Of a DNA stretch of 64,000 bases, positions 10,584 through 30,351 are shown piece by piece. The first letter of the stretch is position 1, and each line of letters opens with the position of its first letter. The stretch spans positions 86,471-150,470 of the forward strand of contig NZ_BANF01000027.1 in NCBI RefSeq assembly GCF_000964425.1. The letters are read 5' to 3'. The notes beneath the pieces were generated by a model. It searched no databases and was not told the origin of the DNA. It worked only from the letters and a program-made list of their open reading frames with translations. The stretch is from Komagataeibacter intermedius TF2 (GTDB lineage: Bacteria; Pseudomonadota; Alphaproteobacteria; Acetobacterales; Acetobacteraceae). The position numbers were made by a program, and so were the translations under genes.

Positions 10584-10596
10584 GGAGCAGCGGCCA

Positions 10597-12307: not shown

Positions 12308-12328
12308 CAGCGACCACGGAGAACAGAT

Positions 12329-14890: not shown

Positions 14891-16384
14891 TCATATGACC
14901 CCGGCCCAGTTTTCTCGCCGCCAGTCGCCTACAGCATAAGGCATGCCTGCCCTGTCCACCCCGGCACAGGCGATGGCGCCAAAACACATTGCCCCGTCCG
15001 CCATCGGTTCGATGACATGCCCCATCCCGGCCAGGGCGGATCGGGCAGGATGCCTGTGTTCCATCAGCAGTTTACCCGCCTGACTGCGCCACCGGGGGGC
15101 GGCAATGGCAGTTGCCAGGTCTTCCCCGCGCCGGATGATACGGTCAATGAACTGCAGAAGGGTCTGGACCTGCCCATCAGCCCCCGGCGTCGCAATGGCA
15201 AGCGTGCCACGGTCCGTCCGCAACAGGGCTGGTGCCAGCGTATGGACCGGCCTTTTACCCGGTGCATAGGAATTGGCACCCTGTGTAAAACCGCCCGCCC
15301 TGTTGTTCAGGAAAATGCCCAGTTCGGGAACGAAAACACACGACCCGAAATCATCAAACACGCTGACAAGGGAAGATACCGCCATTCCCTGCGCATCGGT
15401 CACGCAGACGCCCGCGGTATGCAGGTACCCACGCGGGCCACCACGGTTTGCGGCGCGGGATACGTCAATCTCCAGCGGCTGATCCAGCAGCGCCATTCCT
15501 TCAAACGCGCGGTCGCGACAGGCAAAGGAAGCTTCGGTCAGTTCAACGGCAATGTGTTCCGCCGCAATATCATCGGCCGGCTGGAAATTCGCGAAATTGT
15601 TCAGGACCATTCCCAGCAGCACGCCCTGCGTCGGCGGTGGCTGGAGAAAAACGTCCACTCCATTATGGTTGACCTGCAGGGGATCGGTCAGCCCTGTCTG
15701 GTGAACGGCCATGTCATTCAGGTCAAGTGCGCCGCCCAGCGCGCGGACGCGGCTGACAATGGCGCGGGCCATGTCCCCTGTATAGAAACACGCAGGCCCC
15801 GTGCGGGCGAAAGCACGCAGCACTTCGGCCAGTTGCGGCTGGACATGTTTTTCACCTGCCTTCACATGCCGCCATGGGCACGCGGCAGATCCGTTCTGTC
15901 GCAGGCGTTCATCATGCCCCGCAAGGGTCCTGCCCAGACAGGCGGAGACCTCAAACCCGTTTTGCGCGATCAGCGTGGCGCGTTTCAGGCACGCTTCCAG
16001 CGGCAGGACGCCCCACCTGTCATGCATGACGGACCATGCGCCCGGCAGGCCCGGCACCGTGATGCTGTTCGCCCCGTCAATCGCGCAGTCATGACCGGAT
16101 GCGGGGGCCGCCCCGGCACCGCTTATGGCCTTTACCGACTGACTGTCATCGATAATCGCGAACAGATCCCCCCCGATGCCACATGCATCGGGGGAAACCA
16201 CGCAGAGAACGGCCTGCGCGGCGATGGCCGCATCCACGGCCGATCCCCCCTGCCCCAGTATTTCCTGTCCCGCCGCCACCGCCAGGGGATGGGCCGCGGA
16301 CACCGCGCCCGTACAGCCTGAAAGGACGGGCATGACCGGTGACGAATAGCCATCGGCAACCCGCCAGTGCGAACCTGTTGTCAT
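14891..16384 (-). CDS. Gamma-glutamyltransferase-family Ntn hydrolase, possibly oxamate amidohydrolase (HpxW-like)
   Basis: 497 residues. Conserved blocks: ACGIGGDLFAI, GANSITVPGLPGAW, QPPPTQGVLLG, catalytic nucleophile Thr323 in GYLHTAGVCVTD (self-cleavage expected before it), then NNRAGGFTQGA and SYAPGKRPVHTLAPALL. The last block (APGKRPxHTLxPAL) is typical of the HpxW/YwrD branch, which includes oxamate amidohydrolase of Klebsiella, rather than classical GGT. No signal peptide is visible, so probably cytoplasmic. Two roles fit: oxamate to oxalate plus ammonia, next to the AllFGH-type genes, or hydrolysis of a gamma-glutamyl amide made by the ligase at 31869. Last gene of a nine-gene minus-strand run; abuts the SDR gene. 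Confidence 0.82.
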   Translation of the reverse strand: MTTGSHWRVADGYSSPVMPVLSGCTGAVSAAHPLAVAAGQEILGQGGSAVDAAIAAQAVLCVVSPDACGIGGDLFAIIDDSQSVKAISGAGAAPASGHDCAIDGANSITVPGLPGAWSVMHDRWGVLPLEACLKRATLIAQNGFEVSACLGRTLAGHDERLRQNGSAACPWRHVKAGEKHVQPQLAEVLRAFARTGPACFYTGDMARAIVSRVRALGGALDLNDMAVHQTGLTDPLQVNHNGVDVFLQPPPTQGVLLGMVLNNFANFQPADDIAAEHIAVELTEASFACRDRAFEGMALLDQPLEIDVSRAANRGGPRGYLHTAGVCVTDAQGMAVSSLVSVFDDFGSCVFVPELGIFLNNRAGGFTQGANSYAPGKRPVHTLAPALLRTDRGTLAIATPGADGQVQTLLQFIDRIIRRGEDLATAIAAPRWRSQAGKLLMEHRHPARSALAGMGHVIEPMADGAMCFGAIACAGVDRAGMPYAVGDWRRENWAGVI

Positions 16385-17125
16385 TTATACCGCCGTGTAA
16401 CCGCCATCGATGACGATGGACGTACCCGCTATGTACCGCCCTGCTTCCGAACTCAGCAGCAGGATCAGGGATGAAACCTCGTCCGGCACACCGTGTCGGC
16501 CCAGCGGGATCTGCGCATCGATTTCCTTGCGCCGCCCCTGCGGATCCTGCTGGAAGGTCCAGAAGGGATCATTGAACGGCGTGTCGATCCAGCCTGGCAG
16601 GATGCAGTTGATCCGGATGCCCCTGGGGCCAAGTTCCGCAGTCAGGCTACGCGCCAGCCCCGGCAGGGCGGCCTTTGTCGCCTGATAGGCGGACATGCCT
16701 GCATGCCCCTTGATCGCCCCGGTGGAGGACGTGAAGATGATGCTGGGGTTATCGGACGCCGCAAGATGGGGTGCGGCTGCCTGCGTCATGAAGAACGGCA
16801 TCTTGAGATTGAGGTCCGTCGTACGGTCCCACATCTCCTCGGTCCAGTCGGGCAATGTTGCCGACAGCATGAGGGCGGCGGTAATCAGGACGGTATCAAG
16901 CCCGCCAAACTGCCGGACTGCGGTCTCCACCACTTCCCTGGCCACACCTGGCGCGCCAAGGTCGCGCTGCATGAACATGCAGGCTCCCTTTCCCGGCTCA
17001 TCCGCCACGGCCTGCGCCTGTTCACGATGGTCGACAAGGACGACATTATCCCCGCGTTCGCGAAACTTCCTTACGCTTGCCAGCCCGATACCTGTCGCAC
17101 CGCCAGCAACGATTACGGTTCCCAT
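16385..17125 (-). CDS. Short-chain dehydrogenase/reductase (SDR)
   Basis: 246 residues from the ATG at 17125, preceded by AAGGAGAACAG; the frame extends further upstream, but that part is unrelated sequence. Classical SDR motifs: VAGGATGIGLA (TGxxxGxG type, about residues 6-16), catalytic Ser and YxxxK in SAYQATKAALPGLARSL, and PGWIDTPF; the C-terminus SIVIDGGYTAV is standard. NAD is likely (an acidic VLVDHRE after beta-2). It lies in the P450/hydantoinase operon, 14 bases after the P450 stop, and probably oxidises an alcohol made by the oxygenase or esterase steps. Confidence 0.88.
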   Translation of the reverse strand: MGTVIVAGGATGIGLASVRKFRERGDNVVLVDHREQAQAVADEPGKGACMFMQRDLGAPGVAREVVETAVRQFGGLDTVLITAALMLSATLPDWTEEMWDRTTDLNLKMPFFMTQAAAPHLAASDNPSIIFTSSTGAIKGHAGMSAYQATKAALPGLARSLTAELGPRGIRINCILPGWIDTPFNDPFWTFQQDPQGRRKEIDAQIPLGRHGVPDEVSSLILLLSSEAGRYIAGTSIVIDGGYTAV

Positions 17126-17139
17126 TTTATCTGTTCTCC

Positions 17140-18339
17140 TTATCTGGGACCAATGGCCATGGGCAGCGTGAGCAGGCCACGCAGTCCGGGCGTCAGGCGC
17201 AGGGTTGCGTCCTGTGTCATGTCCAGCCTGCCAAACTTTTCCGCCAGCGTGCGGAAAAAGACCTCGCCTTCCAGACGCGCCATCATCTGCGCGACACAGC
17301 CATGGATGCCGGTGCCATAGCCGATCTGGTGCGTGATGCGGCGGCGGATATCGAACCGGTCGGGTTCCTCCCACACAGCCGGGTCGCGACCGGCCGAGCC
17401 GATCAGCACCAGTACCTTCTGGTGCCTGTCCAGCTTCTGGCCTTCGAACTCGAACGCCCCGGTCGTCGTGCGGAACAGGCTCTGGGAGGAACTGTCGTAA
17501 CGCGTTGCTTCTTCAAACGCGGCACGGGCCAGGGTGGGATCTTCCTGCAGGATCTTCCACTGTTCGGGATGTTCCGCCAGCGCGCGCAGGCACAGGCCTA
17601 TGGAATCAATGGTCGTATCCACCCCCGCCGAGAGGAAGGAGCGCACAAGCAGCTTGGCTTCCGCATGCGTGACTTCGCCGCGGTCAGCCGCAGCATAGAT
17701 GGCCGCGCCCAGCCCGTCATCGGTCAGGGCGGACCGCTCGCACCTGGCATCGACCCACGCACTGACTTCATCAGCACGTTCCAGCAGCCTGTCATACCAG
17801 GCCGTACGCGGCCCGAAGGCGCCGAAGACCATACCACCGTAAATAAGCATCATGTCCCGGTCCAGCGGGGGCATGCCCACTGCGTCGGGAAAGACCTTCA
17901 TGGGGAAGGGCTGCACCAGCTGCGAAATCGCCTCGATTTCCCGGTTTTCAAGCACCCGGTCCATCAGCGTGTTGGCTTCCTGCAGAAAAACCTTGCGCAT
18001 TTTCTGAAGCGCGCCCGGCGTGAAAAGACGCATCAGCACACGGCGCGTGCGTTCATGTTCCGGTGGATCGACTTCAAGGATGATGCTTGGCTTGCGCCAG
18101 TTCGGTTCCTTGAAATAATTGGTCAGGCCACCGCCGCCCGCATTGGAAAACCGCTTCCAGTCGGTCAGGACTTCCTTGACCTGCGCATAGTGGTGCACAA
18201 CCCATATGTCATAGCGTTCCAGCCACACAATGGGGCCCAGCGCCCGCAACTGCGCATAATGCCGATAGGGATCCGCGCGGAATTCTTCCGAAAAAGGGTC
18301 CAGGTCGGAACAGACCCGTCCATCCGTATGGTAAGTCAC
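17140..18339 (-). CDS. Cytochrome P450 (CYP199-like, class I)
   Basis: 399 residues. Haem ligand Cys348 in GYGTGIHGCVAQ, the I-helix motif FLSAGVDTTIDSIG (acid/Thr pair D-T-T), ExxR in EEATRYDSSS (F)R region, and the C-terminus LRGLLTLPMAIGP. N-terminal DPFSEEFRADPYRHYAQLRA and the C-terminal pattern resemble CYP199A enzymes that O-demethylate methoxybenzoates. The haem-loop differs slightly from consensus (Tyr for the first Phe, Ala for the Gly after Cys-Val). It overlaps hyuB by four bases. The putidaredoxin-like ferredoxin and its reductase at 28.8-30.4 kb are the obvious electron donors. Confidence 0.92.
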   Translation of the reverse strand: MTYHTDGRVCSDLDPFSEEFRADPYRHYAQLRALGPIVWLERYDIWVVHHYAQVKEVLTDWKRFSNAGGGGLTNYFKEPNWRKPSIILEVDPPEHERTRRVLMRLFTPGALQKMRKVFLQEANTLMDRVLENREIEAISQLVQPFPMKVFPDAVGMPPLDRDMMLIYGGMVFGAFGPRTAWYDRLLERADEVSAWVDARCERSALTDDGLGAAIYAAADRGEVTHAEAKLLVRSFLSAGVDTTIDSIGLCLRALAEHPEQWKILQEDPTLARAAFEEATRYDSSSQSLFRTTTGAFEFEGQKLDRHQKVLVLIGSAGRDPAVWEEPDRFDIRRRITHQIGYGTGIHGCVAQMMARLEGEVFFRTLAEKFGRLDMTQDATLRLTPGLRGLLTLPMAIGPR

Positions 18340-20069
18340 TGTTTCGCTCCGCTTAAAATCCGGCGCTGGTTGCGTGTTTCGTTTTCATCAATGACATGGT
18401 CCGGCGTAATGACCACCCCGTAATCCCGTGCCGCTGTCTGGATCGAGATCTTTTCGTCCAGCACGTCATCAAGGACCATCTGTGGGTCACGCTCGTGCGG
18501 CAGGCCATATCCCCCGCCCCCTGCCATGGTATGATGGAACACATCGCCGGTATTGAGGATGATGGGCTGTGTCGGCATCGCGGGCAGGACCTGCTCATGT
18601 CCGTCCACCTGCAGGATATTGACCGCAGGTGCCCCTGTTCCGCCGCCGAACAGCCCGTAAGGCGGATACTTCACCTTGTCCGAACGGACACCGAAATACA
18701 CGTCATCATGCAGGATGCGGTAGGCACGGGTAATCCCCAGCCCGCCCCGGTAACGCCCCGCGCCCGCAGTATCGGGGGCGATGGCGTACTCCTCTATCCG
18801 GATCGGGTAATCCGCTTCGATGATTTCAATGGGCACATTGGCCTGGTTGGAGGCCATATGCGGCACCCCTTCCTGCCCGTCATGCTGGCTGGTGGCGCCC
18901 CATACGCCCATGATGCATTCGGAAAACACGAATGTTTTTCCCCGCTGGCGGCCACTGAAGCTGGGCAGGGTCGATCCACCCGCGCCATCGGCGGCGACAC
19001 GGTCAGGCAGGCAGTCCGCCAGCGCACCGAACATGCAGTCCACAATCCGGTAGCCTGTGATCCCACGCCCGCCGCAGGCTGCGGGGTAGGTACAGTTCAG
19101 GACGGTCCCCTCCGGCGCGATGACCCTGATCGGACGTGTATAGCCATGGCAGTTGGGCACATCATCACCCATGACCGAACGCAGGGCCGCATACACATTC
19201 GATTTGCAGAAGGACAGCGGTGCATTGATGCCCCCCGCAACCTGGGCCGATGTCCCGGTCCAGTCGGCCACCACCTCATCACCGGAAATTTGCAGGCTGA
19301 GGCGGAACACAACCGGTTCGGGACACTCACCCAGCCCGTCGATATGGTCTTCGAAAGTGTAACATCCATCCGCTATGGCGCTGATGGCGGCACGGGCAAG
19401 CTTCTCGGCATAATCATGCAGGGCAATGGTGTACTGCTTTATGCGCTCCCTGCCATATCGGCGCAGCATTTCATGCAGGCTGCGCGTCCCGGCTTCGACC
19501 GCCGCGCACTGGGCCGCAATGTCGGGCAGCACAAGGTCGGGCGTGCGGACATTGGCGGCAATGATGCTATGGATGGCCCGATCCGGCGTTCCTGCACTGA
19601 AAAGCTTCAGGAACGGCAGACGCAGCCCCTCCTGATGGATGCTGGTCGCACTGAGCGAGTTGCTGCCGGGAACCAGTCCGCCCACATCGACATGATGGGC
19701 AATTGTTGCCGCCCATCCACACAGTTCGTCTTCAAAGAAAATGGGCCGGACAACATAAATGTCCGGCAGATGCTGCCCCGACGCAAGATAGGGGTCATTG
19801 CCGATAAAGACATCGCCATCGGCAATATCCCCCTCATACTGCTTCATGAGATGCTTCATCGCATCATAGAAGCTGCCAAGATGCATCGGCGTGGTCAGGC
19901 CCTGGGCGATATTTTCCCCGTTGGCGTCACACAGCGCCGTGGAAAAATCCATGGCGTCGCGCACGATTGGCGAATGGGCCGTCCGCATGAGGATGATCGC
20001 CATTTCGTCGGCAATGGCCTCAAAGCCATTCTTGATGATTTCGAGGAGAGCCAGATCACATTCAGCCAT
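18336..20069 (-). CDS. hyuB: Hydantoinase/oxoprolinase subunit B (HyuB)
   Basis: 577 residues. Begins MAECDLALLEIIKNGFEAIADEMAIIL, with the conserved RDAMDFSTALCDANGENIAQG, FIGNDPYLASGQHLPDIYVVRP, HHVDVGGLVPGS and the glycine-rich C-terminal segments TAGAGRYRGGLGITRAY and TMAGGGGYGLPHERD. With HyuA it forms ATP-dependent enzymes that open lactams and cyclic ureides: 5-oxoproline, N-methylhydantoin, caprolactam. Coupled to hyuA by a one-base overlap and to the P450 gene by four bases. The substrate cannot be read from sequence. Confidence 0.92.
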   Translation of the reverse strand: MAECDLALLEIIKNGFEAIADEMAIILMRTAHSPIVRDAMDFSTALCDANGENIAQGLTTPMHLGSFYDAMKHLMKQYEGDIADGDVFIGNDPYLASGQHLPDIYVVRPIFFEDELCGWAATIAHHVDVGGLVPGSNSLSATSIHQEGLRLPFLKLFSAGTPDRAIHSIIAANVRTPDLVLPDIAAQCAAVEAGTRSLHEMLRRYGRERIKQYTIALHDYAEKLARAAISAIADGCYTFEDHIDGLGECPEPVVFRLSLQISGDEVVADWTGTSAQVAGGINAPLSFCKSNVYAALRSVMGDDVPNCHGYTRPIRVIAPEGTVLNCTYPAACGGRGITGYRIVDCMFGALADCLPDRVAADGAGGSTLPSFSGRQRGKTFVFSECIMGVWGATSQHDGQEGVPHMASNQANVPIEIIEADYPIRIEEYAIAPDTAGAGRYRGGLGITRAYRILHDDVYFGVRSDKVKYPPYGLFGGGTGAPAVNILQVDGHEQVLPAMPTQPIILNTGDVFHHTMAGGGGYGLPHERDPQMVLDDVLDEKISIQTAARDYGVVITPDHVIDENETRNQRRILSGAKQ

Positions 20070-22171
20070 CAGGAGTCATCCCGCGTTTCAAGTTCGATTA
20101 CAATATTGTTGTAATCATCAAGCCATGCGCGGCAGTCGGGCGGGACAACTGTCGTGCCTTCATATTCCTCAATGATCAGCGGCCCCTGCATGGGCTGCGT
20201 ATCCAGCATGTCCCGCCGCAGGACCGGTGTTTCCACCAGCCCCCCCAGCGGGCCGAAATAGGCCATGCGCACGCTCGTGCATCCGTTCTCCGCCGCACGG
20301 CCTGGGCTCTGGATTTTTGTGGTTCCACGGGGGGCGATTGCGGCCACGACGCGGATGGCGGCCAGTTCGATGGGGGTATTTTCGTGGGAATATCCGTAGC
20401 TGCGCACATGCTCCGCCACGAAATCCTCGATCAGCCGGTTTACGATCCCGGCCGTAATATCCGACGTATCGACCGCGATCCCCAGTTCAGACCCCTGTCC
20501 GTGATAACGCAGGTGGACGGTCCTGCGGACCTGCACGCCGGACCTGGCCTGCATGTCGTCCATCACGGCGCGTTCAAGCGATTCCAGTGCGCCCTTCAGT
20601 TTCTGGCAATCTGCCTGTTCTGCTGACAGGAGACCGGACAGCGCAAGGCTGCGCCCGGATTCATAATCCGCGAACAGCAGTCCGACCGCGCTGAATACGC
20701 CCGCGCCCAGCGGCACGATGACCCGGCCCATATTGAGTTCACGCGCCAGCGCCGCGGCATGCATCCCGCCATTGCCGCCAAACGCAAGCATGGTGAAATC
20801 CTTCGGATTACGCCCACGATATGTCGAGACACCCTTGACGGCGCGCATCATCGCGGCATTCGCGACGCAGTGAATGCCATAGGCTGCGTCCAGCAGGCTG
20901 ACATCGGTCTGGCTGCATACCGCGCGGCGGATCGCCTCTTCACCACGGGCCCTGTTCAGGCATACGCTGCCGGATGCAAGGGCTTCGGGATTAAGGTATC
21001 CCAGCACCAGATTGGCATCCGTTACCGTGGCTTTTTCACCGCCTGCGTCATAACAGGCGGGGCCGGGAACGGCACCGGCACTTTCCGGGCCGATCTTGAT
21101 CACGCCGCCCGCATCCAGGCGGACGACACTGCCGCCCCCTGCCCCAACTTCGGATACGTCGATAATGGGCAGCTTGAGGGCATATCCGCCCCCCTTGGCC
21201 AGTGCGCTGGACATGGAAATCCCGCCGCCGACTTCGTAATCATCGGTTACGGTCAGGCCGCCGTCCTGAATCAGCGACGCCTTGGCAGTCGTGCCGCCCA
21301 TGTCAAAGGTAATCAGATCCCGATACCCCGCAGCAGCCCCCAGCCGCGCGGCGCCAACCACGCCCGCCGCCGGGCCGCTTTCGACGACCGTTGCCGGTTT
21401 CGCCACGACCTTGTCCACATCCAGCAGGCCACCGCTGGACTGCATCATCAGGACATGCCCGTCAAAACCCGCATCCTTCAGCCGGGATTCCAGCGTTGTC
21501 AGGTAACGGCGGACCACCGGGCCGACATAGGCATTCACGACCGTGGTGCTGGTGCGTTCGTATTCACGCATTTCAGGCAGCACGTCGTAGCTGGTACAGA
21601 CAAAGCAGCCTGCCGGCAGCACGTTGCGAAGCCGGGACAGGACAGCCTGTTCATGCGCAGGGTTCGCGTAGCTGTGCAGGAAGCAGACCGCGACCGCCTC
21701 AACCTGCAGGTCACGCAGCCGGACGGCCAGCGCGTCCACATCCGCAGTATCCAGCGGTGCAAGCACCTGCCCTTTCGGGTCCATGCGCTCGGTAATTTCA
21801 AAGCGCAGGCGCCGGGGCGCCAGCGGTGGTGGCTTGCAGTACAGCGGTTCATACAGCCGCGGCACGCGGATACGCCGCAGTTCCAGCACGTCCCGGAAAC
21901 CGCGGGTCGTAACCAGCGCGGTCTTCGCCCCCTTGCTTTCCAGTATGGTGTTGGTCGCGATTGTCGATGCGTGAAGCAGATTCGCGAAATGCGACATCGG
22001 CACGTCCACGCGTTCAATAATCTGGCGAATACCGTTCAGGATGCCTTCGCTATAATCATGCGGCGTGGACGGCACCTTGGCCGTCAGCAGGATACCGTCG
22101 CCCGAAAGACATGCGATATCGGTGAACGTCCCGCCAATATCCGCCGCGATACGATAAGTCGTCATGCTCAT
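20069..22171 (-). CDS. hyuA: Hydantoinase/oxoprolinase subunit A (HyuA)
   Basis: 700 residues. ASKHA-type ATPase motifs: phosphate-1 IAADIGGTFTDIAC at the N-terminus, LLHASTIATNTILESKGAKTALVTTRGFRDVLELRR, and the central FDMGGTTAKASLIQDG with AFGGNGGMHAAALARELNMGRVIVP later. It phosphorylates the ring carbonyl so that HyuB can complete hydrolysis. The start is in an ATGA overlap with the upstream enolase-superfamily gene. A second ATG two codons downstream is possible. Substrate class: hydantoin, lactam or oxoproline. Confidence 0.93.
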   Translation of the reverse strand: MSMTTYRIAADIGGTFTDIACLSGDGILLTAKVPSTPHDYSEGILNGIRQIIERVDVPMSHFANLLHASTIATNTILESKGAKTALVTTRGFRDVLELRRIRVPRLYEPLYCKPPPLAPRRLRFEITERMDPKGQVLAPLDTADVDALAVRLRDLQVEAVAVCFLHSYANPAHEQAVLSRLRNVLPAGCFVCTSYDVLPEMREYERTSTTVVNAYVGPVVRRYLTTLESRLKDAGFDGHVLMMQSSGGLLDVDKVVAKPATVVESGPAAGVVGAARLGAAAGYRDLITFDMGGTTAKASLIQDGGLTVTDDYEVGGGISMSSALAKGGGYALKLPIIDVSEVGAGGGSVVRLDAGGVIKIGPESAGAVPGPACYDAGGEKATVTDANLVLGYLNPEALASGSVCLNRARGEEAIRRAVCSQTDVSLLDAAYGIHCVANAAMMRAVKGVSTYRGRNPKDFTMLAFGGNGGMHAAALARELNMGRVIVPLGAGVFSAVGLLFADYESGRSLALSGLLSAEQADCQKLKGALESLERAVMDDMQARSGVQVRRTVHLRYHGQGSELGIAVDTSDITAGIVNRLIEDFVAEHVRSYGYSHENTPIELAAIRVVAAIAPRGTTKIQSPGRAAENGCTSVRMAYFGPLGGLVETPVLRRDMLDTQPMQGPLIIEEYEGTTVVPPDCRAWLDDYNNIVIELETRDDS

Positions 22172-23325
22172 TTATCAGACCGGAAAGACTGAAGCTTTTC
22201 TTCATCAACAACGATTCCGAGCCCCGGCGCATCAGGCGGCAGGAGGGCCCCGTCCTTAACAGCCATTGGCTCCGCCAGGACATCATCATCATAATAATGG
22301 CCGGCCACACGATACGGATGGGTGCCCGATGGCGCGCTGATCGCGATGACCGCCGCCAGGGAAACACTCGGCCGCGCCAACGCGAAATGCACATTGGCCG
22401 CCGTGCCGATCGCTGACTCAATGGAACCATTGACGTCACAGGCCATGAGATGTGATTCCGCAAAGTCCGCCACCTTGCACGCCCCGCCAAAACCGCCGGC
22501 CTTGGCAAGGTAGATGGAGAAGCAGTCGGCTGCCCGTTCACGGACGACATCGTAGGCGTCATGAATGTCCCAGCAGCTTTCATCCGCCACGATGGGCACG
22601 GACGACGATGCCGTGACTTCCGACATGTAACGCAGGCCCTGCGACGGCTGTTCCACCAGTGACACACCGGCATCCGTCAGCTGCCTTACGACACGCGACG
22701 CATTCTTGCCGTGGCCATATCCCTGATTGGCATCCATGCGCAGCGTGATGCCATCCCCCAGCAGCCTGCGCAGTTCCGTGATGAGCGAGATATCCCGCGC
22801 GCTATCCACGCCCCCCTTGATCTGGAGGGTGCCGACACCATCTTCCACCGCCATGACGGCTTCCTGCACGGCCTCGGCCTGCGGCATCAGGCCCACCATA
22901 TGCGCGACCGCCACGCCATCACGCACCTTTCCGCCCAGCAGCCTGTACACAGGCAGGCCTGTCACCTTGCCCCATGCGTCATACAGCGCGATACTGACGG
23001 CGCATTTGGCATAGACGTTCCCGACCGCCACATGGTTCATGATCTGGGCCGCACGCGTCACATCTGAAACATCCGACCCGATCAGTGCCGGCCCCAGCAC
23101 GTTCTGGACCATTTCGATAACGGTTTTGACCGTCTCGCCAGCATGACGGCCAAAATCCCCGCCCCAGTCGGGAAGCGGTGTTGCTTCCCCCCAGCCGACA
23201 ACGCCATTTTCCGTTTCGACCCGGACCGCGACAAAATTCCCCAGGTCCCCCAGCATGCCAGCCCAGCGGAAGTCACGCCGCGTGGGCAGTGAAAATGGGA
23301 ACGCCGTAATAGAGATAATTTTCAA
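22168..23325 (-). CDS. Mandelate racemase/muconate lactonizing enzyme family protein (enolase superfamily)
   Basis: 385 residues. Catalytic lysine in TLQIKGGVD (second Lys position of the KxK motif), metal ligands Asp in RMDANQGYG, Glu in VEQPSQG and the acidic pair in VADES, and the opposing lysine in YLAKAGG. This pattern is of the MLE subgroup (cycloisomerases, dipeptide epimerases, N-acyl amino acid racemases). It overlaps both neighbours by four bases (MFS gene and hyuA). Beside a hydantoinase a racemase or epimerase role is attractive, but this is inference. Confidence 0.88.
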   Translation of the reverse strand: MKIISITAFPFSLPTRRDFRWAGMLGDLGNFVAVRVETENGVVGWGEATPLPDWGGDFGRHAGETVKTVIEMVQNVLGPALIGSDVSDVTRAAQIMNHVAVGNVYAKCAVSIALYDAWGKVTGLPVYRLLGGKVRDGVAVAHMVGLMPQAEAVQEAVMAVEDGVGTLQIKGGVDSARDISLITELRRLLGDGITLRMDANQGYGHGKNASRVVRQLTDAGVSLVEQPSQGLRYMSEVTASSSVPIVADESCWDIHDAYDVVRERAADCFSIYLAKAGGFGGACKVADFAESHLMACDVNGSIESAIGTAANVHFALARPSVSLAAVIAISAPSGTHPYRVAGHYYDDDVLAEPMAVKDGALLPPDAPGLGIVVDEEKLQSFRSDK

Positions 23326-24581
23326 GTTCTCTTCTCCTCATGAAGAATTGGGGATGTCCGGTCTGGCGAATGGGTTCCGATACCGGTCTGGCTGGCCAGT
23401 CCTGTCCGGCCTCCGGGAACAAGCCACGCGGCAAGAAGCAGCGTGACCGACGCCAGCCCCCACAGGATATTCCACTGCGAAATGGCCAGAAAAACAGGTG
23501 GGGCAAGCAGGCAGACAAAGGACGTTATCTGCCCGATGATACCGGATGCGAGCCCAATATCCCCTGGGGACGTAACCAGTAATGGCAACTGTGCCGTGGC
23601 TGACCCGACCAGTCCCCCAAATGCAAGCAGCCACATGACCAGACCCAGCAGGGCGATCGGGAACGTCCCATACGGGAAAAACAGCACCAGGATCGCGAAT
23701 ATCCCCATCACGACCAGCAGGCGGTACAGGTTCCGGAAATCCACCTTGCGGATCAGAAGGTACCCCGTCAGGACACCACCACAGACCATAGCCAGTATCT
23801 TGGCCCCCGCAACGCCGCCGTTCGATACCTTCAGGCTCAGCCCGTACAGATGTTCAAGATAGGAAGGCGTGACCACACTGACCCCGTACGCCACGGCATT
23901 GGGCAGCGCCAGGGCAAGGGCGAGACGGGGCACGGCACGATCAAGCAGGAAAAGTTTCAGGCCCGCACGCAGGCTACGGACTTCCACGATTGCGGATTGT
24001 GCCGGAAGCCAGAACGCCAGCACGATCAGGACACAGAAAATACCACCGTCCCACGCAAATGACTGGCGCCAGTGGGTGCCTGTTGCAAACGGCACGGCCA
24101 GCAGCAGGCCACAGGCATAGCCAACCGGTCCATAGGTGGACCAGAAAGACAGCGCACGCGTACGGAGATTTCCATCAAGCCAGGAAACCAGGGCACTGGG
24201 GCAGGCGACCGCCATGCAGCCGAAGGCCGTACCTTCCAATGCCATGCCGCCATACAGCATTTCGGGATCACTGGCGCCAGCAAGGAAAATATTACCCAAT
24301 GCCGCCAGAATACCGGCCAGGACCATGCCGTACCGGATGCCGATACGGTCAATCAGCCGCCCGATCGGCATGCAGGCCAGAGCGGCCGGGATCGAATAGA
24401 TCGACAGCGCCATACCGGCTTGCGCACGCGATATATGCAGATCCCGCCCGATTTCGACAACAAACGACACGAATATGCCAACGCTGGTCATTGAAAGCAC
24501 AATGCTTGCGTAACAGAAAGCGATCAGCATTGCGGATCTTACGTTCCGCCGGGCCACGGGCCTGTCTATTGCCGCATTCAT
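23322..24581 (-). CDS. Major facilitator superfamily transporter
   Basis: 419 residues with about twelve hydrophobic segments. The loop 2-3 motif is GRLIDRIGIRYG (about residues 78-89). The N-terminus MNAAIDRPVARRNVRSAML is cytoplasmic and basic. It is probably the inner-membrane importer for the compound handled by this operon, paired with the TonB receptor at the outer membrane. One base separates it from the esterase gene; it overlaps the next gene by four bases. Specificity not predictable. Confidence 0.85.
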   Translation of the reverse strand: MNAAIDRPVARRNVRSAMLIAFCYASIVLSMTSVGIFVSFVVEIGRDLHISRAQAGMALSIYSIPAALACMPIGRLIDRIGIRYGMVLAGILAALGNIFLAGASDPEMLYGGMALEGTAFGCMAVACPSALVSWLDGNLRTRALSFWSTYGPVGYACGLLLAVPFATGTHWRQSFAWDGGIFCVLIVLAFWLPAQSAIVEVRSLRAGLKLFLLDRAVPRLALALALPNAVAYGVSVVTPSYLEHLYGLSLKVSNGGVAGAKILAMVCGGVLTGYLLIRKVDFRNLYRLLVVMGIFAILVLFFPYGTFPIALLGLVMWLLAFGGLVGSATAQLPLLVTSPGDIGLASGIIGQITSFVCLLAPPVFLAISQWNILWGLASVTLLLAAWLVPGGRTGLASQTGIGTHSPDRTSPILHEEKRT

Positions 24582-24582
24582 G

Positions 24583-26187
24583 TCAGCCCTGCTCCAGCAC
24601 GCGGTTTTCCATGGCTTTTCCCAGAAGTGCCAGCCTTTCGTAATTTTCTATTGGCACAAGCACCGGGGGCCGCTCATCCAGCCGGAACAGTTGCCGCTGT
24701 CCGGGCGTGTAACGTGGCCACTGGGGCAGGCCCGCACCGTTCGGGTTGCCGTTTCGTGCAAAATTCAGCCAGTAGCCCGACATCCTGCGCATGAGATCTT
24801 CCTGTTCGTGCTGGCGTTCGGACCATATTGGCTGGGTCTTGAACACAAAGCCTATTTCCGCGCCATGAAACGCATATCCCGGCGGCGCTGCGGTGGCATT
24901 TTTCGCACCCCATACAGCCGGAAGCGCATATCTGTAGTCAAAACGGTAGGCATAGCTTGTACTGACGCGGGCCATCATCATGGCCAGGACAATACTGTTC
25001 CAGTTGAAAACCAGATCCCCGAATACATCGCGTCCCATTGTTGTGGGCGTCGCCCCGGGTTCCGCCTGCATCAGGGACAGCACCCTGCCCGCCTCATTGC
25101 CATATATCTGATGGACAGCCTTGCCCAGGCCAGCGGCCGTGCCATTGCCGATGGGCGGGAACAGGCTGCCTTCATCATGATTATGTCCGGCCATGACCGG
25201 CACCCGGGCGCAGTTTCCGGCCGCCAGCATGCGAAAGGGATGTTCAGGCACAAGGAAACCGTCAATCACGGGATAGAACTGCCAGCTGAACCCGTATTCC
25301 CTGATCAGGATCTCTGGCGGCAGGCTACGTAGCCCGGCGAGATCGGGGTGGCCGATCCGACGACCGAAAGCGGCGCCTGCCTGCTGCATTTCAGGCAGTC
25401 GTCCGAGGAGAATTTCGGAATCCGGCCGCCCCAGCGGCGCACCGCTCTGGGCAATGGCGCGATGGAACAGCCCGCGTGACTGGGGCATGACCAGATGGTA
25501 GGCCACACTGAATGCACCGGCGGACTGCCCAAAAATGGTAACATTGTCCGGATCGCCACCAAAGGCTTCAATATTGTCACGCACCCAGCGCAGGGCGGCG
25601 ATCTGGTCCATCAGGCCATAATTGCCCGAGACGCCCTGGGGGGACTCCCGCGCCAGTTCCGGATGGGCAAAAGACCCCAGAATACCAACGCGGTAGTTCA
25701 GGGAGACGACAACCACGTCCTCAGCCGCAAGTGCCGCGCCATTATAATGCGGATCCGCACTGGATCCCATGATGAAGGCGCCGCCATAAATCCAGACCAT
25801 GACCGGACGGAGCGTCCCGCGACGCGGGGGCGCCCAGACATTCAGCGTCAGGCAGTCCTCGCTCATGTCCGCAGGGGTAAAGGCGCTGTCCGTATCACCG
25901 GAGAGCGAGGATGGCGCATACGGGCTATGACCGAAATGATCGGCCCTGCGCACCCCTTTCCATGCCCTGACAGGCTGGGGAGGACGCCAGCGGAGCGGGC
26001 CGACAGGTGGCTCGGCATACGGAATGCCAAGCCATGCGGTCACACCAGGAACAGCGGTAGAGACACCTTCCAGCGCCCCGTCCTTTGTCCGTATGACGGC
26101 GGAATGGGCCTCTGCCTTACTCCATCCGAGCATGGTCAGCCCCGAGCCGATCATGAAACCGCGTCGTCCTGTCTGCCCTCGCACCAC
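24583..26187 (-). CDS. Type-B carboxylesterase (para-nitrobenzyl esterase family), probably exported
   Basis: 534 residues. The N-terminus MVRGQTGRRGFMIGSGLTML with a twin arginine followed by a hydrophobic run and AEAHS looks like a Tat signal. Type-B signature 2 SEDCLTLNVW, oxyanion YGGAFIMGS, nucleophile Ser222 in FGQSAGA, and catalytic His in FHGAEIGFVF are all present. It hydrolyses carboxylic esters, presumably in the periplasm. The gene follows the TonB receptor by 28 bases, so it may process the imported ester before MFS uptake. Confidence 0.9.
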   Translation of the reverse strand: MVRGQTGRRGFMIGSGLTMLGWSKAEAHSAVIRTKDGALEGVSTAVPGVTAWLGIPYAEPPVGPLRWRPPQPVRAWKGVRRADHFGHSPYAPSSLSGDTDSAFTPADMSEDCLTLNVWAPPRRGTLRPVMVWIYGGAFIMGSSADPHYNGAALAAEDVVVVSLNYRVGILGSFAHPELARESPQGVSGNYGLMDQIAALRWVRDNIEAFGGDPDNVTIFGQSAGAFSVAYHLVMPQSRGLFHRAIAQSGAPLGRPDSEILLGRLPEMQQAGAAFGRRIGHPDLAGLRSLPPEILIREYGFSWQFYPVIDGFLVPEHPFRMLAAGNCARVPVMAGHNHDEGSLFPPIGNGTAAGLGKAVHQIYGNEAGRVLSLMQAEPGATPTTMGRDVFGDLVFNWNSIVLAMMMARVSTSYAYRFDYRYALPAVWGAKNATAAPPGYAFHGAEIGFVFKTQPIWSERQHEQEDLMRRMSGYWLNFARNGNPNGAGLPQWPRYTPGQRQLFRLDERPPVLVPIENYERLALLGKAMENRVLEQG

Positions 26188-26215
26188 GAAGCGCCTCCCC
26201 TATTCCATAACAGTA

Positions 26216-28603
26216 TTAAAAGCCGGCACTGACCGTCGCCATGACCATGAACGGTGTCGAAACATAGTATGTGGGAGCCCCACCCGCTGCGATTGTCGTG
26301 CCTTTCAGGCCGCGCGATGCATTGGCGCTTGTCTGCACACCATACACACCCGACAGGTAATGGTTGTTCGCCGCGTTGATCATGTTGACACGGATTTCGG
26401 GCCGCTTGAGGAAACCGACATTGTTGAACCGGTACCCACCCGTCAGATCGAGCTGCACGTAAGGATCGATGGACGCATCATTCATGAAAGTCGAATACTG
26501 CCGCCCGACCCATTTCACGCCCGCGTTGCCGAAGAAGTGGCCATCGTCATAATCAAGCGCGAAACCAAGCTGGTATTTCGGGGCTTCGACAGCGCTTTTT
26601 CCCTTCGTGCGCAGATAATCCGCACCGACCTGCAGGTTGCTGTCCTGGCGGGCATCCAGATATTCAGCCGAAATATAGGGCCGCAGATGGTGCCAGGGTC
26701 CCGTGCCCATTTCGAAGTCAACGCCACGGGCATGTTCCCCACCGCCATTGATTTCGGACGGGATCTGCTGCGAACCGCGATAGGTTTCCGTGCTGACCAG
26801 ACGGTTGGTAAAGTTGTAGTTGAAGAAGGCGATCCGCGCCATCAGGAGCTTTGAAGTATACCGGTAGCCAATTTCTTCAGTAATGGAGTATTCAGGTTTC
26901 AGGGACGTATTTCCCGCCTTGGTCTCCACGCCATTATAGGTCCCTTCGAACAGGGCATTGGATGACGGAACACGGAAAGCAGTGCTTCCATTGACATAGA
27001 ACTGATGATGACGGTTGAGCTTGAACGTCGCGCCGAACATGGGCAGCGGTTCGGCATTGTTGGTGTTGGCATTATACGGCACGCCCGGCAGGGAGTTGAC
27101 ACCCTGACGCGTCACCATCGCTTCACGGAAACCGGCCATCATCTTCAGGCGGTCATGCAGCAGCGAGACCGTATCGGCAATGTACAGCACATTTGTCGTA
27201 ACATAGGAGTGCTGCGCCATGAGCGAGATCGGATGACCGTTATACGTGTAGTAGTTCGTGGTGCCCCATGGGTCCAGCGGCGCGCCACTGGAGCTTACGC
27301 GCCCGTAATTCGAATACAGATCATCATTTTCGTACTGGAACCAGTAACCAAATGTAAGGGAGTTATGCTTCGTTTTATATTCAAGGTTCGTATTGAAACC
27401 TGACCGGGACGTTTCCTCGATATAGGGCTCATAGACCATCGAACTTCCGCCGATTTTTCCATCGCCATTCAGATCGACAGGCACGCTTGTCAGACCGGAG
27501 TAAACCGCGTTTTCACTTACGGTACCGCCAAAGCCCGTGGTGCCGAACATATAATATGTATAAGGGGTGAAGTTTAATTTCAGATTCCTGGTGATATTGA
27601 TGTTGGTGGGCAGGGACACCAGCAGTGACTCATAGGGGTTATCATGCAGCTTGTAGTATTTTGAATTGGTGCCATTAGCCCAGTTGTTGGTGTAATTGTA
27701 CTGACCGCCCTGATTATACTGGGCCAGGGTCGGATAGTTGTAGTTGGAAATATCAAATTCGCTGAACGAAATCGTCAGCTTGGACCGGCTGCCATGTCCC
27801 CAGTCCTTCAGCAGGCCAAGGTCCATGTGGGTCTTGGAGTCATGACCGTAACCGCGTGTGTGGTTGCCTTCCGACTGCGAGACGGAGATGAACATGCGCA
27901 CGCCGGACCGACCGATCTCACCCGTATCCACACGGACAAAGCCACGCGCCATGTCATACGAACCGCCGGTGGAATCCGCGGTAATATGGAAGTTTTTGGA
28001 TGGATCACGGGTAAACATGGTGACGACACCACCGGACGCATTGACGGTTGGTGTTGAAATATCCGGCGAACCCTGATCCAGCCGCACGCGTTCCAGGTTT
28101 TCTGTATCGGCCCATTCCGCCGGATTGACCTGGCTGTTGTAGGTGCTGGTAACGGGAATGCCTTCGTATACAAACCCCATCTGGGATGAATCGAGGCCAC
28201 GCACCGAAAGACCGCCCCCCCCGAACTGCATGTTGAAGGGATCGCTCGATGCGGCATTGGCGCCGGGTTCATATTTGAGCAGCTGGAATATGGACTGTGT
28301 TGGCGACTGTTTCGCAATGAAATCGTGGCTGACCGTACTGGCCGACTTGAAGCCCGTTTCAGCCGAGATCAGGCCACCCCCCATCTGCCGCCCCGTAACG
28401 CCAGTCGAAGAAATGGCGCCATCGGCGGTAACGGTCATCAGTTCAACTTTCTGAGCTTCCGTCCGGTCTGCCGTTTTTTGTGCCTTATGCTGGCTTGCCC
28501 GGGTCTGCTTTGTCGCAACCGCGCTCTGAGCGCTAGATTGTTGCGAATATGTTGCGGCAACCACGCAGCTCGCCAACAGGAAAATTCGTCTACTAACGCT
28601 CAT
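26216..28603 (-). CDS. TonB-dependent outer-membrane receptor
   Basis: 795 residues. Signal peptide MSVSRRIFLLASCVVAATYS...SAQSA; plug domain from about residue 75 with GGGLSVRGLDSSQMGFVYEGIPV and PTVNASGGVVTMFTRDP; a beta-barrel rich in aromatic strands follows and ends in FMVMATVSAGF with terminal Phe. It imports a substrate at the outer membrane using TonB energy. First gene of a run of nine on this strand (28 bases to the esterase). That context argues for a catabolic substrate rather than a siderophore. Confidence 0.9.
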   Translation of the reverse strand: MSVSRRIFLLASCVVAATYSQQSSAQSAVATKQTRASQHKAQKTADRTEAQKVELMTVTADGAISSTGVTGRQMGGGLISAETGFKSASTVSHDFIAKQSPTQSIFQLLKYEPGANAASSDPFNMQFGGGGLSVRGLDSSQMGFVYEGIPVTSTYNSQVNPAEWADTENLERVRLDQGSPDISTPTVNASGGVVTMFTRDPSKNFHITADSTGGSYDMARGFVRVDTGEIGRSGVRMFISVSQSEGNHTRGYGHDSKTHMDLGLLKDWGHGSRSKLTISFSEFDISNYNYPTLAQYNQGGQYNYTNNWANGTNSKYYKLHDNPYESLLVSLPTNINITRNLKLNFTPYTYYMFGTTGFGGTVSENAVYSGLTSVPVDLNGDGKIGGSSMVYEPYIEETSRSGFNTNLEYKTKHNSLTFGYWFQYENDDLYSNYGRVSSSGAPLDPWGTTNYYTYNGHPISLMAQHSYVTTNVLYIADTVSLLHDRLKMMAGFREAMVTRQGVNSLPGVPYNANTNNAEPLPMFGATFKLNRHHQFYVNGSTAFRVPSSNALFEGTYNGVETKAGNTSLKPEYSITEEIGYRYTSKLLMARIAFFNYNFTNRLVSTETYRGSQQIPSEINGGGEHARGVDFEMGTGPWHHLRPYISAEYLDARQDSNLQVGADYLRTKGKSAVEAPKYQLGFALDYDDGHFFGNAGVKWVGRQYSTFMNDASIDPYVQLDLTGGYRFNNVGFLKRPEIRVNMINAANNHYLSGVYGVQTSANASRGLKGTTIAAGGAPTYYVSTPFMVMATVSAGF

Positions 28604-28785: not shown

Positions 28786-28817
28786 GAAAGTATAAGTTGT
28801 GCTAATTCTATACTTTC
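28786..28817 (-). terminator. AT-rich inverted repeat at the end of the ferredoxin reductase gene
   Basis: Perfect nine-base repeat GAAAGTATA (28786-28794) / TATACTTTC (28809-28817), loop 14, overlapping the TAG stop of the reductase gene. Weak as an intrinsic terminator because the stem is AT-rich; it could also be a binding site. Confidence 0.35.
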
Positions 28818-30028: not shown

Positions 30029-30351
30029 TAAAACTGGCACTCCGGCACATCAACGCCAAAGGTTTCCACATCATCCGGCACGGTAATCTGGCATGCCAGG
30101 CGACTGTTGGGGCGCCGTTCCGCCGCGACACCGTCAAGCATTTCGGATTCTTCTTCATTCGCAGGGGGGATCAGCCCCACGTATTCCGGTTCGACATAGA
30201 CATGACATGTGGCGCACGCGCACGCCCCACCGCACTCCGCATCAATTCCACGGACGTTTCCCTGCACGGCGACCTGCATGACGGTCTGGCCAGACTTGGC
30301 GGCGACCGATCGGGCGGATCCGTCAGGTAGGTGGAAAATCACTTCGGTCAT
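30028..30351 (-). CDS. [2Fe-2S] ferredoxin, putidaredoxin/adrenodoxin type
   Basis: 107 residues from ATG 30351 (GGGGA eight bases upstream), beginning MTEVIFHLPDGSARSVAAKS. Cluster ligands are in AECGGACACATCHVYV (C-x5-C-x2-C), with the fourth Cys in SRLACQITV. It shuttles electrons from the reductase encoded just downstream to a class I P450 or a three-component Rieske oxygenase; both occur in the window. Divergent from the Rieske gene. Confidence 0.93.
   Translation of the reverse strand: MTEVIFHLPDGSARSVAAKSGQTVMQVAVQGNVRGIDAECGGACACATCHVYVEPEYVGLIPPANEEESEMLDGVAAERRPNSRLACQITVPDDVETFGVDVPECQF

What the first reader, a model, noticed from the sequence alone, without database searches (positions are those of the whole stretch)
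14891..28603. Nine-gene import-to-ring-opening operon of unknown substrate
TonB receptor, exported esterase, MFS carrier, enolase-superfamily enzyme, ATP-dependent HyuAB, P450, SDR and GGT-like hydrolase are joined by gaps or overlaps of at most 28 bases. The order reads as outer-membrane uptake, periplasmic ester cleavage, inner-membrane uptake, then isomerisation, lactam or hydantoin opening and oxidation. I know of no described pathway with this combination.
Basis: partly seen in the sequence, partly recalled or inferred. Interest (0 to 1): 0.75.

Follow-up and report, generated by a model that had tools for sequence, protein, structure and literature searches.

The report
Widely shared cyclic-amide breakdown operon
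An acetic-acid bacterium carries nine tightly packed genes, the core of which recurs side by side in unrelated bacteria, and which are predicted to import and take apart a still unidentified aromatic acid with a ring-shaped amide, a route that would likely feed the cell nitrogen and carbon.

Summary
The P450 is CYP199-like. The "GGT" keeps its presumed catalytic threonine but has lost the (recalled) gamma-glutamyl contacts. The enolase-superfamily enzyme belongs to an uncharacterised clade with Q-x-K at the muconate-type K-x-K position.

In 26 scanned loci, HyuA and HyuB lie within 10 kb of the enolase gene in 19. All 14 loci with the P450 also carry HyuA, HyuB and GGT. Close relatives of the receptor and MFS carrier were found only in acetic-acid bacteria.

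The unit is larger than reported. A ferredoxin, its reductase, a Rieske oxygenase and a glutamine-synthetase-like gene lie next to it and resemble the Sad set that deaminates 4-aminobenzenesulfonate. In 149 sphingomonad-family genomes this oxygenase occurs only in the two that carry the enolase gene.

Predicted mechanism: ester uptake and cleavage, P450/SDR oxidation of an aryl carboxylate, racemisation, ATP-dependent cyclic-amide opening, amide hydrolysis, arylamine deamination. The substrate is unknown. Known enzyme kinds, new combination.

The parts
26216..28603 (-). TonB-dependent outer-membrane receptor, 795 aa
   Evidence: PF00593 and PF07715 above cut-off; orthologue at >=45% in 3 of 26 loci, all acetic-acid bacteria
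24583..26187 (-). carboxylesterase with a Tat-like N-terminus (GRRGFMIGSG), predicted exported
   Evidence: PF00135, 378 bits; N-terminus read; orthologue in 5 of 26 loci
23322..24581 (-). MFS inner-membrane carrier, 419 aa
   Evidence: PF07690, 123 bits; >=45% relative in 3 of 26 loci
22168..23325 (-). enolase-superfamily (MR/MLE) enzyme of an uncharacterised Q-x-K clade; predicted racemase/epimerase
   Evidence: PF13378/PF02746; below the muconate model cut-off, 229.5 against 334.95 bits; Gln168, Lys170, Lys275 invariant in the 28-row alignment
20069..22171 (-). HyuA: ATP-binding subunit of an ATP-dependent lactamase/hydantoinase
   Evidence: PF01968, PF05378; DIGGT at 11, DMGGT at 290, GAVPGP at 366, the motifs described for CapA
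18336..20069 (-). HyuB: metal-binding hydrolytic subunit
   Evidence: PF02538, 563 bits; Asp41, His100, Asp103, His125 match the CapB metal tetrad by motif and spacing, not by an alignment with CapB
17140..18339 (-). CYP199-like cytochrome P450
   Evidence: 373 bits to PbdA (9g9q), 347 to CYP199A4, next family 157; 9 of 11 PbdA substrate contacts kept
16385..17137 (-). SDR-family dehydrogenase, 250 aa
   Evidence: PF13561, 176 bits; also next to HyuAB where P450 is missing (L017, L019)
14891..16384 (-). GGT-fold Ntn-type hydrolase, by its residues probably not a gamma-glutamyl enzyme
   Evidence: PF01019; below TIGR00066 cut-off, 240 against 357.85; Thr323 invariant in 12 of 12 aligned rows; gamma-glutamyl contacts changed in the alignment
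28808..30040 (-). ferredoxin reductase, SadD-like by position and family; could also serve the P450
   Evidence: PF07992, PF14759; same position in Acetobacter loci L003, L020
30028..30390 (-). 2Fe-2S ferredoxin, SadC-like by position and family
   Evidence: PF00111; a related ferredoxin (36%) follows the P450 directly in Neorhizobium L024
30541..31854 (+). Rieske oxygenase alpha subunit, SadA-like
   Evidence: PF00355, PF19301; match in 13 of 18 searched enolase-bearing genomes, 11 of 11 with the P450; 66% to N. resinovorum SA1 plasmid pSA3
31869..33305 (+). glutamine-synthetase-like arylamine ligase, NpaA1/SadB-like
   Evidence: 478 bits to 8wwu, which is NpaA1, next 175
33415..34221 (+). 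IclR regulator
   Evidence: PF01614; a 51% relative lies beside the Rieske module in another Komagataeibacter without the enolase gene
34191..37823 (+). secreted lipase-like esterase, amidohydrolase, lactonase-like metallo-beta-lactamase: linked genes, role unassigned
   Evidence: same three genes beside Rieske/GS-like in two Acetobacter genomes (L039, L041)
5723..14850 (+). AllK, AllH, HbpS-like, IclR, SBP5, AllF, AllG, AllG: carbamoyltransferase/carbamate-kinase set linked in acetic-acid bacteria
   Evidence: Pfam AllG, AllH; linked to the operon in Acetobacter G001 and G002, there with AllK/AllH/HbpS inverted

Best explanation
The nine genes form one closely packed run whose core (enolase-superfamily enzyme, HyuA, HyuB, CYP199-like P450, SDR, GGT-fold hydrolase) recurs together in other bacteria, and they are predicted to take up an ester of an aromatic carboxylic acid bearing a cyclic amide, which HyuAB would likely open at the cost of ATP. 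Predicted order: the TonB receptor imports the ester; the exported esterase frees the acid in the periplasm; the MFS protein carries it inward; the P450, gripping the carboxylate, hydroxylates or dealkylates the far end of the ring and the SDR oxidises the product; the enolase-superfamily enzyme racemises or epimerises the carbon next to the carboxylate; HyuAB activates and hydrolyses the cyclic amide; the GGT-fold hydrolase splits a remaining amide. The neighbouring Sad-like set (GS-like ligase, Rieske oxygenase, ferredoxin, reductase) would then glutamylate and oxidatively deaminate an arylamine set free by these steps, giving ammonia. Shown: gene order, family membership, motif conservation, co-occurrence. 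Inferred: every reaction, their order, and the substrate class.
For: Core genes co-locate: HyuA and HyuB within 10 kb of the enolase gene in 19 of 26 loci, GGT in 18 of 26, P450 in 14 of 26, and all 14 P450 loci hold HyuA, HyuB and GGT (one of the 14, L002, is the same region in K. oboediens). Pairwise distances of the six core proteins correlate at Spearman 0.56-0.91 over window plus 9 loci. ATP and metal motifs of the lactamase family are present. The P450 keeps the carboxylate clamp Arg/Ser/Ser in 13 of 13 orthologues read, matching PbdA Arg84, Ser87, Ser237. The Rieske gene is in 13 of 18 searched enolase-bearing genomes, 11 of the 11 that have the P450; in a sphingomonad-family sample it is in the same 2 of 149 genomes as the enolase gene and in 0 of the other 147. 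The GS-like protein is closest to the arylamine ligase NpaA1. The sad operon (dioxygenase, GS, ferredoxin) is responsible for 4-aminobenzenesulfonate deamination.
Against: No substrate is known and no transcript or activity was measured. No ring-cleavage route was found for a deaminated benzene ring: no intradiol dioxygenase in the own genome, 18 congeners or 2 Acetobacter; extradiol LigB gives one 97-bit hit in the own genome, and one also in a congener without the operon, so in acetic-acid bacteria the aromatic part may not be used as carbon. The Rieske gene also occurs without the enolase gene in 6 of 58 relatives and on plasmids in other settings, so its coupling is not obligatory; 5 of 18 enolase-bearing genomes lack it, among them 3 of the 5 that have HyuAB but no P450. 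In those Rhizobiales genomes the core stands without the P450. The lactonase, amidohydrolase and All genes are not explained by this scheme.
Confidence: 0.45

Rival explanations
1. A ureide/hydantoin route: HyuAB is a true hydantoinase that gives N-carbamoyl amino acids, the enolase-superfamily enzyme replaces hydantoin racemase, the linked AllF/G/H-AllK genes recover carbamoyl phosphate and ATP, and the GGT-fold protein acts like HpxW (oxamate amidohydrolase, function recalled) on an oxamate-type amide.
For: In the window AllG ends 40 bases from the end of the GGT gene, and All genes are linked to the operon in two Acetobacter genomes; AllG/AllH Pfam matches; HpxW (5hft) is among GGT-fold matches; an amidohydrolase whose best relatives are deaminases lies next door.
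Against: AllG was found in only 3 of 26 loci, all acetic-acid bacteria. HpxW is a weaker match (82 and 70 bits for its two chains) than a protein deposited as cephalosporin acylase (146 bits). It does not need a CYP199-like P450 or an arylamine oxygenase.
Confidence: 0.15
2. The substrate is an N-substituted 4-aminobenzoate (pteroate or folate breakdown, or aminobenzoate esters): the P450 removes the N-substituent, the Sad-like set deaminates the aminobenzoate, the amidohydrolase and HyuAB act on the other half.
For: CYP199 enzymes act on para-substituted benzoates (the heteroatom-dealkylation paper was seen only as a title in a reference list) and Sad acts on a para-aminoaryl acid, so two independent oxygenases point to a para-substituted aryl acid.
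Against: No esters in folate; Rhizobiales loci have the core without P450 and, in 3 of 5 searched such genomes, without the Rieske gene; no intradiol dioxygenase in the acetic-acid bacteria searched; the GGT-fold protein lacks the recalled gamma-glutamyl contacts.
Confidence: 0.1
3. Two unrelated units happen to share a promoter: an ester-scavenging import half (receptor, esterase, MFS) particular to acetic-acid bacteria, and the widely shared core.
For: The receptor and a close MFS relative are in only 3 of 26 loci while the core genes are in 14-19; the Rieske module stands apart from the enolase gene in another Komagataeibacter.
Against: Novosphingobium loci L005 and L006 also place an esterase (49-50%), an MFS (36-37%) and another TonB receptor beside the core, so an import half is recruited repeatedly.
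Confidence: 0.2
4. HyuAB is an ATP-dependent carboxylase of the acetophenone/acetone carboxylase kind, not a lactamase.
For: Same superfamily; HyuA scores 280 bits to acetophenone carboxylase gamma.
Against: Scores to the caprolactamase models are higher for both subunits (495 and 274 bits against 280 and 125); for HyuA the best solved-structure matches are a deposited N-methylhydantoinase (432 bits) and 6yra, a chain deposited as 5-oxoprolinase (371 bits), against 264 bits to acetophenone carboxylase; and no third carboxylase subunit is in the operon.
Confidence: 0.05

Closest known systems
ATP-dependent lactamases: caprolactamase CapAB (Pseudomonas jessenii), hydantoinase HyuAB, IaaCE
   Same: Two-subunit architecture, ATP motifs and Asp-His-Asp-His metal site by motif
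   Different: About half and a quarter of the curated scores needed for CapA and CapB; genomic partners differ; substrate unknown
CYP199 P450s: PbdA (Rhodococcus jostii RHA1), CYP199A2/A4 (Rhodopseudomonas palustris)
   Same: 9 of 11 substrate-contact residues including the carboxylate clamp
   Different: PbdA Val288 and Phe291 are Ser285 and Leu288 here, both fixed in 13 of 13 orthologues read: a changed, more polar distal pocket; operon context not O-demethylation
sad operon of Hydrogenophaga intermedia PBC (4-aminobenzenesulfonate deamination) and npa/atd arylamine dioxygenases
   Same: Rieske oxygenase, GS-like ligase, ferredoxin, reductase
   Different: No GAT-like gamma-glutamyl hydrolase seen among the window proteins scanned between 5.7 and 37.8 kb; linked to a cyclic-amide core; no intradiol dioxygenase in the genome
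hyuABC hydantoin utilisation (Pseudomonas sp. NS671)
   Same: HyuAB plus an amide hydrolase and a candidate racemase (for HyuABC; racemase HyuE recalled)
   Different: Enolase-superfamily enzyme and GGT-fold hydrolase in place of HyuE and HyuC; P450 and SDR added
Oxamate carbamoyltransferase AllFGH with carbamate kinase AllK
   Same: AllG and AllH families encoded beside the operon, the last AllG ending 40 bases from the GGT gene
   Different: Two AllG copies; linked to the core in 3 of 26 loci, all acetic-acid bacteria

Membership tests
CYP199 P450 | closest sequence relatives are CYP199 enzymes | tested here: met
   373-337 bits to CYP199-type chains, 157 to the next
CYP199 P450 | carboxylate clamp Arg84/Ser87/Ser237 of PbdA | tested here: met
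   Arg82, Ser85, Ser234; 13 of 13 orthologues read
CYP199 P450 | hydrophobic pocket incl. Val288 and Phe291 of PbdA | tested here: not met
   Ser285 and Leu288 here and in 13 of 13 orthologues read; so called CYP199-like, not assigned the O-demethylase function
ATP-dependent lactamase/hydantoinase (HyuAB/CapAB) | ATP phosphate and adenosine motifs in A, metal tetrad in B | tested here: met
   the B tetrad was assigned by motif and spacing, not by a CapB alignment
ATP-dependent lactamase/hydantoinase (HyuAB/CapAB) | caprolactamase equivalog score | tested here: not met
   494.7 and 273.8 against cut-offs of 1000; member of the superfamily, not a caprolactamase
ATP-dependent lactamase/hydantoinase (HyuAB/CapAB) | cyclic-amide hydrolysis | not testable with these tools
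   needs purified protein
Muconate cycloisomerase | TIGR02534 cut-off | tested here: not met
   229.5 against 334.95 bits
Muconate cycloisomerase | K-x-K motif (recalled as typical) | tested here: not met
   Q-x-K in all 28 rows of A1 and in 18 of 18 loci read
Gamma-glutamyltransferase | equivalog score TIGR00066 | tested here: not met
   240 against 357.85
Gamma-glutamyltransferase | catalytic Thr at the processing site | tested here: met
   Thr323 placed by motif, invariant in 12 of 12 rows; autoprocessing itself not testable here
Gamma-glutamyltransferase | gamma-glutamyl contacts (recalled as Arg114, Gln430, Asp433, Ser462, Ser463 in E. coli) | tested here: not met
   E. coli DFREM / NNQMDDF / LSSMSP read SGAGA / NNRAGGF / VHTLAP here in the alignment; which positions bind is recalled
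Sad-type arylamine dioxygenase | Rieske + GS-like + ferredoxin + reductase together | tested here: met
   28808-33305
Sad-type arylamine dioxygenase | direct similarity to the characterised SadA protein | not tested
   SadA sequence not at hand; compared with a plasmid gene of the sulfanilate degrader N. resinovorum SA1 (66%), whose role there was not shown in what I read

The most novel reading that the evidence does not exclude
The operon plus the Sad-like set is a complete uptake-and-breakdown route for conjugated oxindole-3-acetate-type aryl lactams, the ester- and amide-stored dead ends of the plant hormone auxin. The esterase and the GGT-fold amidase strip the conjugates, HyuAB opens the oxindole to an arylamine acid as IaaCE is reported to do in Aromatoleum (recalled), the enolase-superfamily enzyme inverts its alpha-aryl carbon, and the GS-like/Rieske set removes the amine. 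It would be a third bacterial route into auxin metabolites (after iac and iad, recalled) and the first in acetic-acid bacteria.
Probability: 0.07. Interest if true: 0.8.

Novelty: new variant of a known kind. Interest (0 to 1): 0.5.

Why it matters
A gene set whose core keeps the same order in acetic-acid bacteria, sphingomonads, Neorhizobium and gammaproteobacterial bog genomes points to a common natural substrate that has not been connected to genes in the papers I could search. It offers a CYP199-like P450 with a changed pocket, an enolase-superfamily clade with an unusual active-site motif, and a GGT-fold hydrolase that probably cannot use gamma-glutamyl groups. All are testable with ordinary biochemistry, and an answer would inform the many relatives now carrying generic names (at least 560 enolase relatives at E <= 1e-60).

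Tried and rejected
Riboflavin/lumichrome catabolism was considered because the paper lists a P450, hydrolases and a Rieske enzyme. Rejected: its TPP decarboxylase, xanthine oxidase and extradiol dioxygenase have no counterpart among the window proteins that I scanned (abstract and part 1 of section 6 read).

p-Methoxybenzoate O-demethylation (pbd-like): rejected as the operon's purpose because nothing else in the operon fits and two pocket residues differ.

The GGT-like protein as a gamma-glutamyl-arylamide hydrolase replacing the AtdA2-type enzyme was my own idea (note). It was lowered when the recalled gamma-glutamyl contacts proved changed.

The N-methylglutamate pathway genes (37.9-49.3 kb) as part of the unit: rejected, because no match to them was found in the Acetobacter island stretches read, L038-L042.

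Fold searches of the enolase and GGT-fold models gave only superfamily-level relatives (a dipeptide epimerase and a muconate enzyme both at 33%; GGTs, an acylase, LmbA, HpxW) and did not name a substrate. Searches for a paper with this gene combination: searches returned 0 papers; two searches listed 10 and 20 papers, none of which describes it by title and abstract start.

Controls and dropped rows. The correlation test used 9 of the 14 P450 loci: L020 was left out for frameshifts in its assembly, L002 as near-identical, and L004, L007, L012 because the SDR is missing or displaced. One search was given 19 of the 26 loci and could not search one of them (L011). Of its 18 genomes, two (L018, L023) lack HyuA/HyuB at 45% or more; among the other 16 the Rieske gene is in 13. 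The two enolase-positive genomes in the 149-genome sample were both known beforehand, so the informative number is 0 of 147. L014's GGT-like hit (33%) was not counted as an orthologue. My own note gives 14 of 18 for the Rieske count; the answer shows 13 and is used here.

Full report
WHAT IS THERE. Nine minus-strand genes run from 28603 down to 14891. Pfam confirms TonB receptor, carboxylesterase, MFS, MR/MLE enolase-superfamily enzyme, Hydantoinase A, Hydantoinase B, P450, SDR and a gamma-glutamyltranspeptidase-fold protein. A promoter/terminator scan found nothing beyond shuffled expectation, so a single transcript is plausible but not shown. The window lies in an acetic-acid bacterium close to Komagataeibacter oboediens (99% identity of the enolase-superfamily protein). 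That relative (locus L002) carries the whole nine-gene set, and genome G025 carries matches across window positions of about 9 to 55 kb on two contigs.

IT IS LARGER THAN REPORTED. Upstream on the same strand, after 204 bases, lie a ferredoxin reductase and a ferredoxin; a Rieske oxygenase and a glutamine-synthetase-like gene diverge from them. Two Acetobacter genomes keep the same neighbourhood on both sides: All genes (AllK/AllH/HbpS inverted; in A. thailandicus, locus L003, a further open frame of 386 aa was called between GGT and AllG), then the nine genes with FdR and Fd, then Rieske and GS-like, and next IclR (found in one of the two), lipase, amidohydrolase and lactonase-like genes. No match to the N-methylglutamate genes further right was found in the Acetobacter stretches read, so I leave them out.

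THE CORE RECURS. A genome scan with a 28-sequence alignment of the enolase-superfamily protein gave 26 loci. With a 45% identity threshold, HyuA and HyuB are within 10 kb in 19 of 26, the GGT-fold gene in 18, P450 in 14, SDR in 14, esterase in 5, TonB receptor in 3, MFS in 3. Every one of the 14 P450 loci also has HyuA, HyuB and GGT. The hosts include Komagataeibacter, Acetobacter, Novosphingobium, Sphingomonas, Neorhizobium and gammaproteobacterial bog genomes; Ancylobacter, Aquabacter, a Bradyrhizobium MAG and a Rhizobiales MAG have HyuAB without P450. The 26 include 5 loci whose enolase match is below 45% (L021, L023, L025-L027) and two (L018 and the 4.3-kb L022) with the enolase gene but no HyuAB at that threshold. 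MFS relatives of 36-38% lie near the core in 7 further loci. Pairwise protein distances of the six core proteins over the window and 9 loci correlate at 0.56-0.91. Within the genus the enolase gene is in 2 of 19 genomes, own included, so it is an accessory unit with a patchy spread.

THE RIESKE MODULE BELONGS WITH IT, LOOSELY. A Rieske match at E <= 1e-60 was found in 13 of 18 searched genomes with the enolase gene (given 19 of the 26 loci, one not held): in 11 of the 11 that have the P450, 2 of the 5 with HyuAB but no P450, 0 of the 2 without close HyuAB. In a sample of 149 genomes of one sphingomonad family, the enolase gene and the Rieske gene each occur in the same 2 at E <= 1e-110, and the Rieske gene in 0 of the other 147; both positives were known beforehand. 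In 60 relatives of the window's genome (own included), the Rieske gene is in 8 and the enolase gene in 2 of these 8: 6 genomes have it without the enolase gene, including another Komagataeibacter (G036) where it stands with IclR, ferredoxin, reductase and GS-like genes and none of the nine showed as a close match in the 31 kb read (a 26% enolase relative lies there). The module is therefore autonomous but strongly associated.

WHAT THE PARTS SAY. P450: closest solved relatives are PbdA and CYP199A4/A2. The PbdA paper (abstract and section 7 read) names Arg84, Ser87, Ser237 as carboxylate ligands and Leu90, Ala241, Phe173, Phe176, Phe291, Thr245, Val288 around the ring, with Arg236 holding a water. 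From the HMMER alignment these are Arg82, Ser85, Ser234, Leu88, Ala238, Phe172, Phe175, Leu288, Thr242, Ser285 and Arg233 here (residues checked). Nine of eleven are kept; the two changes are fixed in 13 of 13 orthologues read. So the P450 likely takes a flat aryl carboxylate with a bulkier or more polar distal group. HyuAB: phosphate motifs at 11 and 290, adenosine motif at 366, and the Asp-His-Asp-His metal set by motif; in caprolactamase the phosphate-site and metal-site residues are needed for activity (passages of the caprolactamase paper). Enolase-superfamily enzyme: acidic ligand positions and two lysines are invariant but the first lysine of the muconate-type K-x-K is glutamine in all 28 aligned relatives; its score is below the muconate cut-off; a confident model (pLDDT 91.9) is equally near dipeptide epimerases and muconate enzymes. 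A racemase or epimerase role is inference. GGT-fold protein: the presumed catalytic threonine is invariant in 12 of 12 rows, but the positions that hold the gamma-glutamyl group in E. coli GGT (numbers recalled) read differently in the alignment. GS-like protein: 478 bits to 8wwu, against 175 to the next; 8wwu is NpaA1, which glutamylates 1-naphthylamine (abstract and passages). Rieske/GS/Fd/FdR together match the layout of the sad operon for 4-aminobenzenesulfonate deamination (passages read), and plasmid relatives lie within about 12 kb of nitroreductase and DUF4863 genes in Methylobacterium, Cupriavidus and Caballeronia.

HOW IT LIKELY WORKS. Taking these together, I predict: outer-membrane uptake of an ester; cleavage by the exported esterase; inward transport of the acid; P450/SDR oxidation at the end away from the carboxylate; stereochemical correction by the enolase-superfamily enzyme; ATP-dependent opening of a cyclic amide by HyuAB; hydrolysis of a further amide by the GGT-fold enzyme; and glutamylation plus oxygenation of an arylamine by the Sad-like set, with release of ammonia. 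All reactions are inferred. In acetic-acid bacteria the pay-off may be nitrogen rather than ring carbon: no intradiol dioxygenase was found in the own genome, 18 congeners or 2 Acetobacter, while 12 of the 35 searched genomes have one. For extradiol LigB the own genome has one 97-bit match; of three congeners searched, one with the operon and one without it also have one and the third has none. The 5 Glyoxalase-family matches in the own genome lie in frames of 138-192 aa, shorter than the roughly 300-aa catechol 2,3-dioxygenases I recall. Gentisate-type and other cupin ring-cleavage enzymes were not searched for.

WHAT DOES NOT FIT. The lactonase-like, amidohydrolase and All genes have no place in the scheme. 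The All genes beside the GGT gene support a rival ureide reading, but AllG is linked in only 3 of 26 loci. Five of 18 enolase-bearing genomes lack the Rieske gene.

NOVELTY. Literature searches for this gene combination returned nothing that matches (judged by listings); the library holds open-access papers only. Every enzyme family is known, the combination is not described in what I could search. I rate it a new variant of a known kind, with interest 0.5: a well-conserved uncharacterised catabolic unit, but with the substrate still open.

Noticed in passing
37936-49281: A complete-looking N-methylglutamate (methylamine) pathway: GmaS-like ligase, MgsA/B/C-like, sarcosine-oxidase-like beta, delta, alpha and a gamma subunit (weak SoxG match), then PurU. 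Not matched in the Acetobacter island stretches read.
   Followed up: partly
5723-14850: Carbamate kinase, AllH, AllF and two AllG copies with an IclR regulator and a family-5 binding protein: an oxamate-carbamoyltransferase-like set in an acetic-acid bacterium.
   Followed up: partly
58022-59470: A gene of strikingly low G+C (third position 0.33 against about 0.6-0.7 in most genes of the window), glycosyltransferase family 61 match: likely recent foreign DNA.
   Followed up: partly
L044 55-19901, L047, L053: In sphingomonads a Rieske/GS-like pair sits with another HyuAB pair (about 37% to the window's HyuA), a 2OG-Fe(II) oxygenase, a PLP enzyme, aldehyde dehydrogenase and a LOG-type protein (DUF3830 in L043): possibly a second cyclic-amide route.
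   Followed up: partly
L061 9992-12361 and L018 9839-12341: More distant relatives of the enolase-superfamily enzyme sit next to M24/Xaa-Pro-type peptidase genes instead of HyuAB, on a Shinella plasmid and in a bacterial MAG.
   Followed up: no
L014 11226-15010: In a Bradyrhizobium MAG, HyuA and HyuB matches lie in one reading frame of at least 1261 aa next to the enolase gene.
   Followed up: no
L004-L024, around the enolase gene: A regulator family weakly similar to the window's XRE-cupin protein (42370-43146) lies within 10 kb of the enolase gene in 13 loci; not detected in the acetic-acid-bacterial loci L002, L003, L020.
   Followed up: no
L072 9430-14713: In Komagataeibacter genome G036 the separate Rieske module lies beside a sugar-acid-like cluster (gluconolactonase-like, MFS, enolase-superfamily protein, KDPG aldolase family, 2-keto-3-deoxy-galactonokinase).
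   Followed up: no
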